Part shown: positions 70 through 33,270 of the stretch, one piece after another
Layout: every line of letters starts with the position of its first letter
Position numbering within the stretch: the first letter of the stretch is position 1
Source: Peptostreptococcus sp. MV1
Lineage (GTDB): Bacteria; Bacillota; Clostridia; Peptostreptococcales; Peptostreptococcaceae
NCBI RefSeq assembly: GCF_000758885.1
Contig: NZ_JRNB01000058.1
Location: 1-64,000 of the forward strand
DNA: 64,000 nucleotides
Direction: 5' to 3'
Notes under the pieces: generated by a model
Told to the model about the DNA's origin: nothing
The model's input: only the letters and a program-made list of their open reading frames with translations
Databases searched by the model: none
Program-made: the position numbers and the translations under genes

Positions 70-534
70 TTATACGTCTAGGCTAAAACTCAGTGGCAAG
101 AGATGTAGTATATCTGTGACCAAGACTTCCCTACCATTTGTAAGTATGATAGGGCAGGTCGGTTCTAATAGCTCAGATAGGACCTGTCTGCAGGCTCCAC
201 ATGGCGTAGTCAACTTCTTGTCTTCTGATACTATGGCAATGGCCCTGATATCTTTTTTTCTATAGCCATTTGAGTAGGCAGAGAAGATGGCATTTCTTTC
301 TGCGCAGTTTGTCAGTCCATAGGATGCATTTTCTACATTTGTTCCTATAAAGTATTTGTTGTTTTTAGTTTCTACACAGGCTCCCACCCTGAAGTTTGAG
401 TAGGGGGAGTAGGAATTTTTTAGGGCTTCAAAGGCCCGGTCTATTAGGGACTTGTCTCTTTTATCAATCTGGTCCAACCATTCTGGGTTAAATGTTTTCC
501 TATTTGGATCGTAATTTCCATAATTTTTAAACAT
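70..534 (-). CDS. cdd: Cytidine deaminase
   Basis: Hydrolyses cytidine/deoxycytidine to uridine/deoxyuridine in cytosolic pyrimidine salvage. The 154-residue product has the zinc site of the family: Cys77-Ala-Glu79 (CAE; Glu is the proton shuttle) and the PCGAC pair Cys112/Cys115. The substrate-binding stretch VGACVET and NVENASYG are also present. It is about 20-25 residues longer at the N-terminus than the usual ~130-residue enzyme, but the start chosen has a plausible SD (GGCGGTGA) eight or nine nt upstream. It lies 24 nt downstream of the HEPN gene on the same strand, so the two are probably cotranscribed. A housekeeping salvage role is the default reading; involvement in the upstream module is only a possibility. 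Confidence 0.95.
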   Translation of the reverse strand: MFKNYGNYDPNRKTFNPEWLDQIDKRDKSLIDRAFEALKNSYSPYSNFRVGACVETKNNKYFIGTNVENASYGLTNCAERNAIFSAYSNGYRKKDIRAIAIVSEDKKLTTPCGACRQVLSELLEPTCPIILTNGREVLVTDILHLLPLSFSLDV

Positions 535-558
535 AGATAATTCACCGCCTATCTTTAC

Positions 559-1281
559 CTAATTTGTATCTTTAATCTGACTATTTTTGACAGACTCTAT
601 AATCTGATAGTTAATAGCCTCAACCATAAATTGAATCACATTGATGGTGTGCAGGACATAGTCATAATCTATAGGATGCTTGTCAGAGCTATTAGGTTGA
701 AAGTCTAGCTCATGGGCTATAATATTTCTCCTGTCAGCGAGTTCATCTACAAACTTTTTTAGGCCTGTAACGCTAGTCAGGTCCTTGAAGCGCATCATCA
801 TCCTTGGATGTATGGCCTTCCACATATTAAAATTTATTATATAGCCAAGATTCCTGTCTATGGCATAAGACTTTTGCATGGTAAAACTTGATGTTAATTC
901 ATATATGGTATTACTTAGGATTTTTTCCTTTTCTTCTGGGTCGAATTCAATTTTATCAAACTTATCCAAGAGAGATATTGGCACCATGAAGTTATCAAAG
1001 TTTTTTCCAGCCGCTGCCTTACCCTTGAAAATCTGGAGTAGCATGGTCTTTACAATATCGTGCATATACTTGTCCATTGAACCACATATGAGGATAACGC
1101 AGTACCTTAGTATATTTTCGTCTTTTTTGTTTTCTAGCATTAGGTCACGTATTTTTCTAGTATTTGCATGAAATACATCTATAGGTACATTTATACTAAT
1201 ATCTATCAGGTCTAGGCCTGTAGCTCTAGGTTTTATGCTTGGTTTTGGTCTTTTGAAAGAGTTCTTGTATTTGTTAGTCAT
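559..1281 (-). CDS. HEPN-domain protein (putative RNase of an ATPase-HEPN pair)
   Basis: A 240-residue, largely helical protein without signal peptide or membrane segment. Near the C-terminus it carries Arg185-Asn186-x3-His190 (DRRNIIAHE), the R(N)x4-6H signature of HEPN domains, whose active members are metal-independent RNases used in toxin-antitoxin, abortive-infection and CRISPR systems. The general layout (helical N-half, then a motif preceded by a VDELADRR helix) resembles the RiboL-PSP-HEPN group, though I cannot confirm the subfamily. Its ATG overlaps the end of the upstream ATPase gene by 8 nt, which suggests translational coupling and a fixed ratio of the two proteins. Inference: the RNase effector controlled by the ATPase. 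It could instead be a non-catalytic HEPN partner. Confidence 0.7.
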   Translation of the reverse strand: MTNKYKNSFKRPKPSIKPRATGLDLIDISINVPIDVFHANTRKIRDLMLENKKDENILRYCVILICGSMDKYMHDIVKTMLLQIFKGKAAAGKNFDNFMVPISLLDKFDKIEFDPEEKEKILSNTIYELTSSFTMQKSYAIDRNLGYIINFNMWKAIHPRMMMRFKDLTSVTGLKKFVDELADRRNIIAHELDFQPNSSDKHPIDYDYVLHTINVIQFMVEAINYQIIESVKNSQIKDTN

Positions 1282-2593
1282 GTAACTCCCTCCTAAAGTA
1301 ATTTAAACCTCCATACTTGCCTGAAAGATAGGCATTTCTAAAGTTTTCACTCTTAGATACATCTAGTATATCAGCAAGTGAGTAAATAGTAGTTTCATTG
1401 AAGTTCTTGTCTGTAATATATATCTGGTCACGTCTCAGGCTCTTCATTTCCAACAAGTCAGTTGTATGTGTAGTCGTAATTAGCTGACCAGATTGGTTTT
1501 CAACAGGGTTTTGGAAGAGGTTAAGTATATATTGGGAAACTATGGGGTGGATATATGATGTCATCTCATCTATGACAAGGGTCTTTCCGTTGTATAGGGC
1601 ATCATATATATAGGCGTATAGGGCATAGATTTTTATAGTTCCTTCAGACTCTTCGAAGAGGTTGAATACTATATCCTTGGAGTTACCATTGATATCTAAG
1701 CCTTTTTTAAAGGTGTTTAATGTCATGGTTTCCCCATCTCCATCAACTTGTCCCTTAGATTTCTTTCTTATATTTTTGAATAAAGTAGACTTACGCATTT
1801 CATCTTTTACTGTATCGTCTATATCGTCTTGTTTTAGAGCCTGACTAAGACTCTGTGCCTGTATTGAGCTTATATTTGAATAACTTATATCTGTCAACAT
1901 CCTCAGTAACTTGGCGTGGAATATATCGCCTTTTTCTAGTAAGTATCTAGTAGTTCTTTGTATATTTTCCCTGGAATCAAAATTATTCTTTATTATAATA
2001 AGGTCGTTTTCAACCCAATCTACAAATTTTTCAACCCTAGTATCAAATATACTAACACTACCAATTATTGGCCTTTTTGACATATTAGGACCCATAATTT
2101 TTTCAATTACACACTTGTCTATTTTTGTATCTAGACTGAAATTATCATAGCTTCTGTCTATTAGAATTGTATAATTTTCATTTGAATCAAATGAAGCAAG
2201 GCGCTCATATATTATTGAGTTTTTATCGTATTTGAACTGGTAGTCAAATACACACCCATCAACTATGGCCCTCAATTGGTATGATGTAGGCTTGTCCCTA
2301 TAAGTATCTGATAGTTTGAAAGGCTTGTATTGAAAAATCTCTATACCTAATTTTTCTGGATTAGATATTTTTGAGAATACAATTTGCTTTCTTGCTAGGT
2401 CAAGAGCTTTTAAAAAGTTCGACTTACCAGATGCGTTGAATCCATAAATTGTGATTGCTGGTAGCAGATGAAGGTAGTCGTTGGACCTATGTATTTTTAT
2501 TCTACTGTCGTCTTCGTCATCAGATTCCACAAGGGAAAAAATCAACCTATTTTTTATAGATAGGTAGTTTTCTATACTAAAATCAATTAACAT
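1274..2593 (-). CDS. AAA/OLD-type ATPase (COG1106-like), partner of the HEPN protein
   Basis: A 439-residue ABC/SMC-type ATPase. It opens with the typical LIDFSIENYLSIKNR strand and has Walker A GFNASGKS (residues 51-58). An ABC-like signature SEGT lies near 316-319, Walker B KTLVIDE at 337-343, and an H-loop His376 in TTTHTTDLLE. The C-terminus has AYLSGKYGGLNYF, similar to the end of AAA_15-type defence ATPases. The middle 200 residues lack a recognisable nuclease (no TOPRIM seen), so effector activity is expected from the overlapping HEPN gene. ATPases of this class act as sensors in phage-defence pairs such as PARIS and Septu. The role here is inferred from architecture and pairing. A TATAAT element lies about 35 nt upstream. 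Confidence 0.75.
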   Translation of the reverse strand: MLIDFSIENYLSIKNRLIFSLVESDDEDDSRIKIHRSNDYLHLLPAITIYGFNASGKSNFLKALDLARKQIVFSKISNPEKLGIEIFQYKPFKLSDTYRDKPTSYQLRAIVDGCVFDYQFKYDKNSIIYERLASFDSNENYTILIDRSYDNFSLDTKIDKCVIEKIMGPNMSKRPIIGSVSIFDTRVEKFVDWVENDLIIIKNNFDSRENIQRTTRYLLEKGDIFHAKLLRMLTDISYSNISSIQAQSLSQALKQDDIDDTVKDEMRKSTLFKNIRKKSKGQVDGDGETMTLNTFKKGLDINGNSKDIVFNLFEESEGTIKIYALYAYIYDALYNGKTLVIDEMTSYIHPIVSQYILNLFQNPVENQSGQLITTTHTTDLLEMKSLRRDQIYITDKNFNETTIYSLADILDVSKSENFRNAYLSGKYGGLNYFRRELHD

Positions 2594-2662
2594 ATCTAAT
2601 CCCTCCTTAACTTCTATATTACCATTATACTACATTGCTATGACTTATTAGACATTAAAGAT

Positions 2663-2701
2663 AAAAAAAGTAGAGGTTGTTTAGACAACCTCTACTTTTT
2701 T
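2663..2701 (-). terminator. Strong near-symmetrical hairpin with A- and T-runs
   Basis: Arms AGTAGAGGTTGT and ACAACCTCTACT around a four-base loop, flanked by A6-7 and T6-7, so it can end transcription in either direction. It lies between two divergent genes, where no protein-coding transcript needs to end. See the candidate small RNA. Confidence 0.8.
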
Positions 2702-2743
2702 AATGTGAGAAATAACTTAATAAGAAATGTAATTCTTTTAAGT
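2663..2743 (-). ncRNA. Candidate short RNA of about 80 nt
   Basis: A leftward promoter (TAGACA, 17-bp spacer, TATAAT at 2778-2750) would start RNA near 2743, and the hairpin at 2701-2663 would end it. No ORF of useful size lies within it. It could be an independent small RNA, or an attenuated leader of the ATPase-HEPN operon that starts about 70 nt further on. Prediction from sequence signals only. Confidence 0.3.
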
Positions 2744-2749
2744 AAGTAT

Positions 2750-2778
2750 ATTATACAATAAGTTGTGATAAATGTCTA
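2750..2778 (-). promoter_or_regulatory. Leftward sigma-A-type promoter
   Basis: Read on the minus strand: -35 TAGACA (2778-2773), 17-bp spacer, -10 TATAAT (2755-2750). It points at the free-standing terminator and the ATPase operon. Confidence 0.55.
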
Positions 2779-2785
2779 ATAGTTT

Positions 2786-2814
2786 TTGTGAAAATCTAAT
2801 TTTAATGGTATAAT
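2786..2814 (+). promoter_or_regulatory. secA2 promoter
   Basis: -35 TTGTGA (2786-2791), 17-bp spacer, extended -10 TGG-TATAAT (2809-2814). This leaves a leader of about 110 nt before the secA2 start; no clear structure was recognised in the leader. Confidence 0.65.
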
Positions 2815-2931
2815 ATAAAGGTCAAAGTAGGTGAATTTGCCCCAAATAGGTAAATAGCTAATATTCAAGAAAATTATATACAAGGATACTTGTTTTATTT
2901 GACATAAAATATGTAATTGAAGGAGTAGATA

Positions 2932-5292
2932 ATGTCGGTTTTAGATTCGTTTTTAAGTAAAAAAGATGATGCAGAAATAAAAAAAATAAACAAAATTGTT
3001 GACCAGATAGAGGCAATAGAGGAAGAAATATCTTCCCTGTCAGATGAGGAACTTGGAGGCAAGACTCAATTGTTCAAAAAAAGATTGGATGAAGGGGCAT
3101 CAATTGATGATGTATTAGTTGAAGCCTTTGCCGTTGCAAGAGAAGCATGTAAAAGAGTCTTAGGTATGAGACAGTACAGAGTCCAGTTGATAGGTGGTAT
3201 AGTCCTACACCAGGGTAAAATAGCAGAAATGAAGACGGGTGAAGGTAAGACCCTAGTTGCTGTGGCTCCATGTTACTTAAATGCCCTATTAGGCAAGGGC
3301 GTTCATGTAATCACTGTAAATGACTACCTAGCTGAGCGTGATGCAGATACAGTCAGACCAGTATTTGAATTTTTGGGTATGTCAGTAGGTACTATAATAA
3401 CTGGCCAAGACCCTTATACTAGGAGACTTCAGTACAATTGTGATGTATCTTATGGTACTAATTCAGAATTTGGTTTTGATTATTTAAGAGATAACATGGT
3501 GAAAAATATTGAGGACAAGGTACAGGGTAAACTTTACTACTGTATAATTGATGAGGTTGACTCAATATTGATAGATGAAGCCAGGACTCCACTGATTATA
3601 TCAGGAGAGGGTGAGGCAATTAGCAACCTATATAATTTGGCTGACGACTTTGTTAAGACAATTGTAGAAGAGGACTATGACCTTGATGAAAAGGAACATA
3701 CAGTATCTCTGACTGAGTCCGGTTTTAGGAAGGCTGAGAACTACTTCAAGATTAGGACAATAACAAATTTAAATAATATGGCGATTTACCACCATATCAA
3801 CCAGGCTCTTACAGCCCACAAGCTAATGGACCTTGATGATGACTACGTAGTCAAGGATGGTGAAGTATTTATAGTAGATGAATTTACGGGTAGAATAATG
3901 GATGGTAGAAGGTTCTCTGACGGACTTCACCAGGCTATTGAAGCAAAAGAAAAGGTGGAAATCAAGTCTGACAACAAGACTATGGCTACCGTTACCTACC
4001 AGAACTTCTTTAGGATGTATGAAAAGTTATCTGGTATGACAGGTACAGCGAAAACAGAAGAAAATGAATTTGAGCAGACCTACCATATGAATGTTGTTCA
4101 GATTCCTACAAACAAGCCAGTTATAAGGGCAGACCTGAATGATAAGGTATATTCAACTGAAAGAGAAAAGTTTGCCGCAGTGGCAGAGGAAATTATAAAG
4201 ATACACAGTACAGGCCAGCCTATCCTAGTAGGTACAGCTACTGTTGAAAAGTCAGAGATCTTGTCTAAGTTGCTTACTGACAAGGGATTGAAACATGAGA
4301 TACTAAACGCCAAGAATAACAAAAAAGAGGCTGAAATAGTTGCAAAGGCTGGTATGGTTGGAAATATCACTATAGCTACCAACATGGCAGGTAGGGGTAC
4401 TGATATCAAGTTAGGTAATGGGGACAAGGATATGGAAGAGCAGGTTAAGAGTCTGGGTGGTCTATATGTCCTAGGTACTGAAAGACACGAATCTCGTAGA
4501 ATAGACAACCAGTTGAGAGGGCGTTCTGGTAGACAGGGTGATCCGGGTGTTTCTAGGTTCTATGTAAGTATAGAGGATGAAATAATCAAGTTATATGGGG
4601 GTTCTGCAATCAAGAAGTTGAGCAAAAAGCTTAAGCCAGACGAGTACGGTGCCCTATCAAGTAGGTCTCTTACAAGGGCAATAGAGAATGCCCAAAAGGG
4701 TATAGAAGGCAAGAACTTTGAACAGAGAAAAGATGTTTTAAAGTACGACAATGTAATAGACAAGCAGAGGAAGGTTATCTATGGTGAAAGGGATAATGTT
4801 CTAAGGGGCATTGACCTGAGAGAAACTATTATGCAGATGGCCAAGGATACTATAGTTGAAAGTGTAGAGAAGTATATTGATGTGAAACCTAGAAATTACT
4901 TTAACTATTTAAAAAGCCTATATACAGCCTTTATGCCAGATGGAACCTTATTGATGCCGGATATTGCTAGCATGACTAGGGATGAAGTAATTGAAAATAC
5001 AATGGAAATTGTCAAGAGGGTATATGAACTAAAGATGATGATGGTTCCAGAATACGAGCTAGCCCGCCAAGAAAAGGAAATTTTGTTGGAAGTAGTTGAT
5101 AATTATTGGGTAGACCATATAGACTTGATGGACCAGATGAGACAGAGTGTAGGTCTGGTATCCGTTGCACAGAAGGACCCGGTTAAAGAGTATACAATTG
5201 AGGGTTACAAGATGTTCGAATCATTAAATAGGAAGATAAGGAGAGAAACGCTTAAGTTTGTATTTACCTTTGACGATTTGGAAGAAGAATAA
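2932..5292 (+). CDS. secA2: Accessory SecA translocase ATPase (SecA2 type)
   Basis: Drives protein export through SecYEG. The 786-residue protein has Walker A TGEGKT (Lys106 near 101-107), the DEAD-like DEVD at 207-210 followed by SILIDEARTPLI, the GTDIKLG motif, and the late motif QLRGRSGRQGDPG. It ends in FTFDDLEEE and lacks the cysteine-rich zinc tail and linker usual on housekeeping SecA1. Its length matches C. difficile SecA2, which exports the S-layer and CWB2 proteins. Downstream are CWB2 proteins and a cell-wall polymer operon, the same kind of neighbourhood. That it is SecA2 and not the only SecA is inferred from the missing tail and context. SD GAAGGAG precedes the ATG. Confidence 0.85.
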   Translation: MSVLDSFLSKKDDAEIKKINKIVDQIEAIEEEISSLSDEELGGKTQLFKKRLDEGASIDDVLVEAFAVAREACKRVLGMRQYRVQLIGGIVLHQGKIAEMKTGEGKTLVAVAPCYLNALLGKGVHVITVNDYLAERDADTVRPVFEFLGMSVGTIITGQDPYTRRLQYNCDVSYGTNSEFGFDYLRDNMVKNIEDKVQGKLYYCIIDEVDSILIDEARTPLIISGEGEAISNLYNLADDFVKTIVEEDYDLDEKEHTVSLTESGFRKAENYFKIRTITNLNNMAIYHHINQALTAHKLMDLDDDYVVKDGEVFIVDEFTGRIMDGRRFSDGLHQAIEAKEKVEIKSDNKTMATVTYQNFFRMYEKLSGMTGTAKTEENEFEQTYHMNVVQIPTNKPVIRADLNDKVYSTEREKFAAVAEEIIKIHSTGQPILVGTATVEKSEILSKLLTDKGLKHEILNAKNNKKEAEIVAKAGMVGNITIATNMAGRGTDIKLGNGDKDMEEQVKSLGGLYVLGTERHESRRIDNQLRGRSGRQGDPGVSRFYVSIEDEIIKLYGGSAIKKLSKKLKPDEYGALSSRSLTRAIENAQKGIEGKNFEQRKDVLKYDNVIDKQRKVIYGERDNVLRGIDLRETIMQMAKDTIVESVEKYIDVKPRNYFNYLKSLYTAFMPDGTLLMPDIASMTRDEVIENTMEIVKRVYELKMMMVPEYELARQEKEILLEVVDNYWVDHIDLMDQMRQSVGLVSVAQKDPVKEYTIEGYKMFESLNRKIRRETLKFVFTFDDLEEE

Positions 5293-33159: not shown

Positions 33160-33197
33160 ATTGATTTTTTAGGGGCTAAAAACCCTAAAAAATCAAT
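33160..33197. repeat. 15-bp perfect inverted repeat
   Basis: ATTGATTTTTTAGGG and its complement around an eight-base loop, 90 nt after ptsI. No T-run on the plus strand after it; may be an RNA 3'-end element or first of two stop signals. Confidence 0.45.
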
Positions 33198-33216
33198 AGT
33201 TTTAGCGATTTTACAC

Positions 33217-33258
33217 AAATAAGGTAGATTGGATTATCATCCGTATACCTTATTTTTT
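33217..33258 (+). terminator. Terminator downstream of ptsI
   Basis: AAATAAGGTA / TACCTTATTT arms followed by a T-run. Ends the pts transcript. Confidence 0.8.
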
Positions 33259-33270
33259 TGTAAAAAAAGC

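What the first reader, a model, noticed from the sequence alone, without database searches (positions are those of the whole stretch)
70..2593. ATPase-HEPN pair with cytidine deaminase in one operon: candidate defence module
Seen: an OLD/AAA_15-like ATPase (Walker A, B, SEGT signature, H-loop) overlaps by 8 nt a protein with RNxxxH HEPN signature, and cdd follows after 24 nt. Known: similar ATPases pair with different effectors (TOPRIM in PARIS, HNH in Septu), and HEPN proteins are common RNase toxins. Inference: ATPase senses infection and releases the HEPN RNase. Whether Cdd (with an extra N-terminal ~25 residues) adds nucleotide depletion, or is just a neighbour, is open.
Basis: partly seen in the sequence, partly recalled or inferred. 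Interest (0 to 1): 0.7.

Follow-up and report, generated by a model that had tools for sequence, protein, structure and literature searches.

The report
ATPase and HEPN RNase defence pair
Two overlapping genes in a Peptostreptococcus bacterium look like a variant of a known anti-virus suicide system in which the usual toxin is replaced by a different, probably RNA-cutting, protein, while the third gene beside them is most likely an ordinary neighbour.

Summary
In detail: ATPase (1274-2593, -), HEPN protein (559-1281, -, 8-nt overlap) and cdd (70-534, -, 24-nt gap) carry the stated motifs. The ATPase fits PADLOC's AbiLi profile (6e-68), whose usual partner is AbiLii/RloB. This one belongs to a minority that precede a RiboL-PSP-type HEPN protein: 13 such pairs were collected, 12 overlapping or within 18 nt; partners co-diverge (r 0.94 over 12 pairs) and dN/dS is low. 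The pair is patchy (7 of 71 family genomes). R185, N186 and H190 never vary in 25 aligned HEPN proteins, even where the partner is a ParA-like ATPase. Best reading: an AbiL-like toxin/regulator pair, probably abortive-infection defence, with an RNase in place of RloB. Nothing was tested on this pair; a 2023 toxin-antitoxin network already links such ATPases to a HEPN node (PMC10440598, passages). cdd is probably not part of it: it flanks 2 of 13 pairs, the same cdd type lies near nagB without the pair in the sister genus, and two species have the pair at this site without cdd. By-product: an unannotated small RNA beside secA.

The parts
1274..2593 (-). ABC-type ATPase of the AAA_21 / AbiLi (RloA-like) kind, 439 aa; putative sensor and antitoxin
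   Evidence: PF13304 2.2e-22; PADLOC AbiLi PDLC02335 6e-68; model pLDDT 86, Foldseek matches to Rad50, PtuA and OLD with TM-scores of about 0.4 to 0.5 by query length
559..1281 (-). RiboL-PSP-type HEPN protein, 240 aa; putative RNase effector
   Evidence: PF18735 2.6e-16; R59, D70, H74, R184, R185, N186, I188, H190, D193 invariant in 25 aligned proteins; model pLDDT 86.8, best solved match a HEPN toxin, Z 8.7
703..732 (-). HEPN active-site motif, residues 184-193 (RRNIIAHELD)
   Evidence: read; R184, R185, N186, I188, H190, D193 invariant in 25 aligned proteins
2420..2443 (-). Walker A of the ATPase, residues 51-58
   Evidence: read; G51, N53, G56, K57 invariant in 40 aligned proteins
1637..1651 (-). 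ABC signature of the ATPase, residues 315-319
   Evidence: read; S316, G318 invariant and E315 nearly so in 40 aligned proteins
1565..1582 (-). Walker B of the ATPase, residues 338-343
   Evidence: read; D342, E343 invariant in 40 aligned proteins
1466..1468 (-). H-loop histidine H376
   Evidence: read; invariant in 40 aligned proteins
70..534 (-). cdd, cytidine deaminase; co-directional neighbour, judged not part of the module
   Evidence: TIGR01354 2e-42; beside 2 of 13 pairs; near nagB without the pair in the sister genus

Best explanation
A two-gene AbiL-like conflict module in which the place of the AbiLii/RloB toxin is taken by a HEPN RNase. Inferred mechanism: the ABC-type ATPase assembles (as the hexameric ATPase of PARIS does), keeps the HEPN protein inactive, and on an infection cue lets it cleave RNA, most likely tRNA or another RNA of translation, so that the cell stops growing or dies before phage progeny form. 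Shown here: two linked, co-diverging, selected genes with intact ATPase and HEPN motifs, a partner that differs from AbiL's, and patchy presence. Inferred: the complex, the trigger, the RNA target and the phage phenotype. cdd is an adjacent salvage gene, not a component.
For: PADLOC AbiLi 6e-68 for the ATPase, no PADLOC match up to E 1 for the HEPN protein. RloB (Pfam) partners of relatives are what PADLOC calls AbiLii. Quick tree of 90 distinct ATPases: partner HEPN 13, RloB 70, none found 5, contig edge 2; the HEPN label needs 2 changes against 12.4 in shuffles. In one family, 13 ATPase genes (E <= 1e-20) in 12 of 71 genomes: HEPN after 7, RloB after 4, neither after 2. HEPN homologues in that family: 7 of 7 beside the ATPase. 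Identities of the two proteins correlate, r 0.94 over 12 pairs, 0 of 5000 permutations as high. dN/dS 0.075 (ATPase) and 0.053 (HEPN) between P. porci and P. sp. D1. Two pairs lie on IMG/VR contigs, and both proteins match phage protein families of unknown function (3.7e-49, 2.5e-16). AAA antitoxins of this kind neutralised TOPRIM toxins, and the same network has a HEPN node (PMC10440598, passages).
Against: No functional data for this pair. PMC10440598 reports no phage protection in E. coli for an AAA-AarT pair, and PMC3985639 no antitoxicity of AbiLi against AbiLii of F. nucleatum (passages), so neutralisation by the ATPase is not general. The four Peptostreptococcus pairs share one chromosomal site, which also suits a vertically kept gene pair. 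Foldseek gave no match at all at E <= 0.001 for the HEPN model; the second look's top rows are HEPN proteins, but unrelated helical proteins follow closely (Z 7.2). One of 13 pairs (G277) has an in-frame stop in the HEPN gene. dS between window and P. faecalis is saturated, so the dN/dS rests on one species pair.
Confidence: 0.66

Rival explanations
1. A plain toxin-antitoxin or addiction pair: the ATPase only neutralises the HEPN RNase and keeps the locus in place; there is no dedicated phage sensor.
For: PMC10440598 classes such ATPases as antitoxins (passages). Homologous HEPN genes follow ParA-like ATPases, a dyad type already predicted to be toxin-antitoxin (PMC3710099, passages), including on a conjugative plasmid and a small phage genome.
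Against: The ATPase is AbiLi-like, and the ABC ATPases of AbiL and PARIS belong to anti-phage systems (PMC12409363, passages); the locus is chromosomal, beside secA, in all four genus carriers, where addiction would seem of little use (inference).
Confidence: 0.18
2. A three-gene module in which Cdd acts with the RNase, for example by removing cytidine freed from broken RNA.
For: cdd follows HEPN on the same strand after 24 nt here and 1 nt in P. faecalis, although the proteins of the two operons are only 58-69% identical. Within the genus the close cdd is seen only in these two genomes, both carriers: 2 of 4 carriers, 0 of 5 non-carriers, which chance gives with 6/36 = 0.17.
Against: Only 2 of 13 pairs. 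In sister genus g11 the same cdd type (63-67% identical) lies near nagB and cvfB without the pair in 3 of 3 genomes, and G032 has a diverged pair at 0.73 Mb and its cdd at 2.11 Mb. P. porci and P. sp. D1 have the pair at the same site without cdd. None of 16 further cdd loci in other genera has the pair within two genes.
Confidence: 0.06
3. The ATPase is the effector or a DNA-repair factor and the HEPN protein is a non-catalytic RNA-binding or regulatory partner.
For: The ATPase model's best matches are Rad50 heads; some HEPN domains are thought not to be RNases (PMC3710099, passages).
Against: RNxxxH and D193 never vary in 25 aligned HEPN proteins with two kinds of partner; in related operons the partner position is held by RloB, a TOPRIM-related protein according to PMC10440598.
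Confidence: 0.08

Closest known systems
AbiL (AbiLi + AbiLii), also RloA-RloB, phage abortive infection
   Same: Same ATPase family (AbiLi, 6e-68), same gene order ATPase then partner, tight spacing.
   Different: AbiLii/RloB is absent; a HEPN protein stands in its place.
NetFlax AAA node D29 with HEPN node M61 (PMC10440598)
   Same: An AAA ATPase of the AbiLi/PARIS/Septu kind linked to a HEPN protein, predicted as toxin-antitoxin (passages).
   Different: In the passages seen the HEPN link is one sentence without an experiment; whether M61 is of the RiboL-PSP type could not be checked, as supplements could not be opened.
PARIS (AriA + AriB)
   Same: ABC ATPase with a separate RNase effector; AriA profile 9.7e-24.
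   Different: Effector is a TOPRIM tRNase (PMC12409363, passages); here HEPN.
PrrC and RloC anticodon nucleases
   Same: ABC ATPase joined to a HEPN RNase (PMC3710099 and PMC12409363 passages for the HEPN; the ABC part from the start of the abstract of PMC2610378 and recall).
   Different: Those are single proteins (recall); here two genes.
ParA/Soj-HEPN dyads (PMC3710099, passages)
   Same: The ParA-linked HEPN proteins found here share the nine invariant residues.
   Different: The partner is a ParA-like ATPase, a different P-loop family; the paper assigns its dyad to the MAE_18760 HEPN family, here PF18735 fits better.

Membership tests
AbiL | AbiLi-type ATPase | tested here: met
   PDLC02335 6e-68
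AbiL | AbiLii / RloB partner | tested here: not met
   no PADLOC match up to E 1 for the HEPN protein; Pfam gives HEPN_RiboL-PSP and no RloB
AbiL | phage protection by abortive infection | not testable with these tools
   needs plating assays
HEPN RNases | conserved RNxxxH motif | tested here: met
   R185, N186, H190 in 25 of 25 aligned proteins
HEPN RNases | HEPN domain by sequence profile | tested here: met
   PF18735 60.5 bits against a cut-off of 28.4
HEPN RNases | HEPN fold in the predicted model | tested here: inconclusive
   7ae6 HEPN toxin Z 8.7, 130 aligned, rmsd 3.9; seven of the first nine rows are titled HEPN or MntA-HepT; unrelated helical proteins from Z 7.2; Foldseek none at E <= 0.001
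HEPN RNases | RNA cleavage | not testable with these tools
   biochemistry needed
PARIS | AriB (DUF4435) partner | tested here: not met
   no such match in Pfam or PADLOC for the partner
Septu | HNH protein PtuB partner | tested here: not met
   no such match in Pfam or PADLOC for the partner
PrrC / RloC | ATPase and HEPN in one protein | tested here: not met
   two ORFs with 8-nt overlap
ParA-HEPN dyad | ParA-like ATPase partner | tested here: not met
   partner is AAA_21; AAA_31/CbiA in L029 and L049
Three-gene module with Cdd | cdd linked to the pair across homologues | tested here: not met
   2 of 13 pairs within the stretches fetched

The most novel reading that the evidence does not exclude
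The window is a node of a swap network in which one ATPase family takes RloB or HEPN, and one HEPN family takes an AbiLi-type or a ParA-type ATPase; in two Peptostreptococcus species the neighbouring cdd has since been captured into the operon as a third working gene, making an RNase plus nucleoside-deaminase defence.
Probability: 0.06. Interest if true: 0.6.

Novelty: new variant of a known kind. Interest (0 to 1): 0.36.

Why it matters
AbiL is a long-known phage-resistance system whose trigger and target are, to my knowledge (recall), not settled. A sister form with the same kind of ATPase but a HEPN partner is a natural swap experiment: it separates what the ATPase does (sense, hold) from what the partner does (cut), and predicts that HEPN and RloB might be exchanged. 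The PADLOC copy used (2023) matches the ATPase but no model in it matched the window's HEPN partner, so a rule that needs both AbiL proteins would pass over such pairs.

Tried and rejected
Cdd as an effector: rejected on linkage. The conserved hairpin between ATPase and secA as the module's own regulatory RNA: rejected, since it is present in the four carriers and in four non-carrier Peptostreptococcus loci and beside secA elsewhere in the family. OLD/AAA_15 label: weaker than AAA_21 and AbiLi. Solved relatives by sequence: the HEPN profile gave only uridine-cytidine kinase 2 chains at E about 0.009, taken as chance; the ATPase profile gave six chains, best an OLD nuclease at 4e-5. PADLOC on other members: the HEPN of L032 matched only Cas8b at 1.3e-4, taken as chance, and that of L029 nothing. 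E. coli genomes by megablast: none, which excludes near-identical DNA only. Wider searches with the HEPN profile, in overlapping sets: order 9 of 393 (one, G273, a weak match with no ATPase in its 3-kb locus), phylum 2 of 398 (the second, G767, has a ParA-like partner), family of G277 2 of 296 (G277 and G273 again). The consensus promoter scan of the region found no more sites than shuffles (15 against 15.1). Not resolved: what follows cdd in this genome. Literature searches for the pair: ('RiboL-PSP' with 'HEPN' gave no paper); for the small RNA: and passages of PMC10267692, which did not place a C. difficile RNA beside secA2.
Full report
WHAT IS THERE. Three ORFs on the minus strand at the start of the window: ATPase 1274-2593, HEPN protein 559-1281, cdd 70-534, with an 8-nt overlap and a 24-nt gap. 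The divergent gene at 2932 is a second SecA of the host: each of the 8 genus genomes that hold it also has another SecA. The window starts at base 1 of contig C58 of a 1.98-Mb, 121-contig assembly. The closest relatives are named Peptostreptococcus faecalis, P. porci and P. sp. D1 in the public records, so the host is taken to be a Peptostreptococcus.

PROTEINS. The ATPase matches AAA_21 (2.2e-22) and, in PADLOC, AbiLi (6e-68), ahead of AriA (9.7e-24). The HEPN protein matches HEPN_RiboL-PSP (2.6e-16) and nothing in PADLOC up to E 1. Both match phage protein families of unknown function. Cdd is a regular cytidine deaminase (TIGR01354, 2e-42). The AlphaFold models are confident (pLDDT 86.8 and 86.0). 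For the HEPN model Foldseek gave no match at E <= 0.001. A second look by VIA-align 2 gave Z 8.7 to 7.3 for the first nine rows, seven of them titled HEPN or MntA-HepT (the other two, 1jog and 7bxo, are of that kind by recall), with unrelated helical proteins from Z 7.2. The sequence profile therefore carries more weight than the fold. The ATPase model matches Rad50, PtuA of Septu and of retrons, and OLD, with moderate TM-scores.

LINKAGE. In 71 genomes of the family the HEPN protein was found in 7, and in all 7 the ATPase lies directly before it. Seen from the ATPase, 13 genes in 12 of the 71 genomes (E <= 1e-20) are followed by HEPN in 7, by RloB in 4 and by neither in 2, one of which has stops inside. 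On viral contigs 142 stretches encode a relative of the ATPase and the best 80 were kept; among 73 distinct ones in the tree, 66 have RloB, 2 (L101, L118) have HEPN, 3 neither and 2 end at the contig edge. RloB was called by a profile built from five partners that Pfam identifies as RloB; two of those and one genomic partner are AbiLii in PADLOC. On the quick tree of 90 distinct ATPases the 13 HEPN-linked ones fall into two groups (4 from Peptostreptococcus, 9 others), each with SH-aLRT 100 and no bootstrap; two changes of partner are needed and one is not ruled out. Four of the 13 (L032, L035, L036, L164) were found only through the HEPN protein, so 13 to 70 is not a frequency. Over 12 pairs the identities of the two proteins correlate at r 0.94 (0 of 5000 permutations), and at 0.89 among the 8 pairs outside Peptostreptococcus; the G277 pair was left out because its HEPN gene is interrupted. 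dN/dS between P. porci and P. sp. D1 is 0.075 (ATPase) and 0.053 (HEPN); between window and P. faecalis dS is saturated. In 12 of 13 pairs the longest ORFs overlap or lie within 18 nt; the 13th is the interrupted one.

A HEPN WITH TWO KINDS OF ATPASE. Of 17 loci found in the genome collection, 7 have the AbiLi-type ATPase before HEPN, 9 have a ParA-like ATPase, and 1 (L039) lies at a contig edge and could not be judged. Of 7 viral-contig loci 6 have the ParA-like gene and 1 (L058) was not resolved. Pfam confirmed the ParA type for L029 and for the phage locus L049; for the others I read the P-loop motif by eye. Two of 12 Burkholderia plasmid hits were opened and both have the ParA type, as has the phage WX-TY, a 10-kb circular record with a zot gene. 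Across 25 aligned proteins of both types R59, D70, H74, R184, R185, N186, I188, H190 and D193 never vary. A ParA/Soj-HEPN dyad was predicted to be a toxin-antitoxin pair in 2013 (PMC3710099, passages).

THE PAIR'S SITE. Eight of nine genus genomes hold this secA gene. In the four non-carriers with it the neighbours are nagB and cvfB (three) or cvfB alone (one), with no pair and no cdd. In P. faecalis the pair and cdd lie between secA and nagB; in P. porci and P. sp. D1 the pair lies between secA and cvfB without cdd or nagB, with one further small ORF on the secA side. So the pair comes and goes at one site, or was there early and has been lost.

CDD. It is beside the pair in 2 of 13 cases, within the stretches fetched, some of which end at contig edges. 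A Cdd homologue (E <= 0.001) is found in 63 of 71 family genomes. In sister genus g11 the same cdd type (63-67% identical to the window's; P. faecalis 68%) lies directly beside nagB in G033 and G034 and one gene from nagB in G032, with cvfB near in all three and no pair in these loci. In 16 sampled loci of other genera no ATPase or HEPN lies within two genes of cdd; 11 of them have what I read by eye as cdd followed by era. The orientation of cdd to nagB differs between P. faecalis and g11, so the site has been rearranged. Against my reading stands that within this genus the close cdd is seen only where it follows the pair (2 of 4 carriers, 0 of 5 non-carriers); that is too few to tell, and capture of cdd in this lineage is kept as the most novel reading.

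MECHANISM. In PARIS the ATPase is a hexamer that senses phage and holds its RNase inactive until then (PMC12409363, passages). AAA ATPases of the AbiLi kind neutralised TOPRIM toxins, and their linked nodes include a HEPN node M61 (PMC10440598, passages). I infer the same logic here with HEPN as the cutter. Complex, trigger, RNA target and phage effect are all untested. The same paper reports no phage protection for one such pair, and an older one no antitoxicity of AbiLi of Fusobacterium (PMC3985639, passages).

KNOWN OR NEW. It fails the AbiL definition on the partner, so it is not filed as AbiL; it is likely to work like it. The kind (ATPase plus nuclease pair) is known, and an AAA-HEPN link has been named in print, so this is a variant, described here by its family, distribution and site. 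The finding is sound but would not greatly surprise a specialist.

BY-PRODUCT. Between secA and the ATPase lies a conserved promoter-like site, about 90 nt and a strong hairpin with a T-run (about 2656-2790, minus strand). It is present in 8 of 8 Peptostreptococcus secA loci. A covariance model built from these eight finds matches in 32 of 71 family genomes. Six loci outside the genus were opened, chosen from the hits: in 6 of 6 it lies beside secA on the opposite strand, with a weaker second match on the other side of secA (E 5e-6 to 0.015). Rfam gave nothing at its thresholds. Covariation support is thin: 1 of 27 pairs has a change on both sides.

Noticed in passing
window 2656-2790, minus strand: Putative unannotated small RNA gene (conserved promoter-like site, about 90 nt, two stem-loops, terminator) beside secA; in 8 of 8 genus secA loci, in 32 of 71 family genomes by model R1, and beside secA in 6 of 6 opened loci of other genera, with a weaker second match on the other flank.
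   Followed up: partly
L027-L031, L033, L034, L037, L040, L049-L051, L053-L057, L059, L163: RiboL-PSP-like HEPN genes directly after a ParA-like ATPase in many phyla, on Burkholderia plasmids and on Pseudomonas phage WX-TY.
   Followed up: partly
L164 (G277, contig C25), HEPN gene at about 2400-3059 of the contig: The HEPN gene of this pair has an in-frame TAG while its ATPase frame is open; sequencing error or decay cannot be told.
   Followed up: no
window 33176-33259, plus strand: Weak second match to the small-RNA model in the window (E 0.0067).
   Followed up: no
window 454-534, minus strand: Cdd has an N-terminal stretch of about 25 residues that P. faecalis and the sister genus lack; a TTG at codon 20 could be another start.
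   Followed up: no
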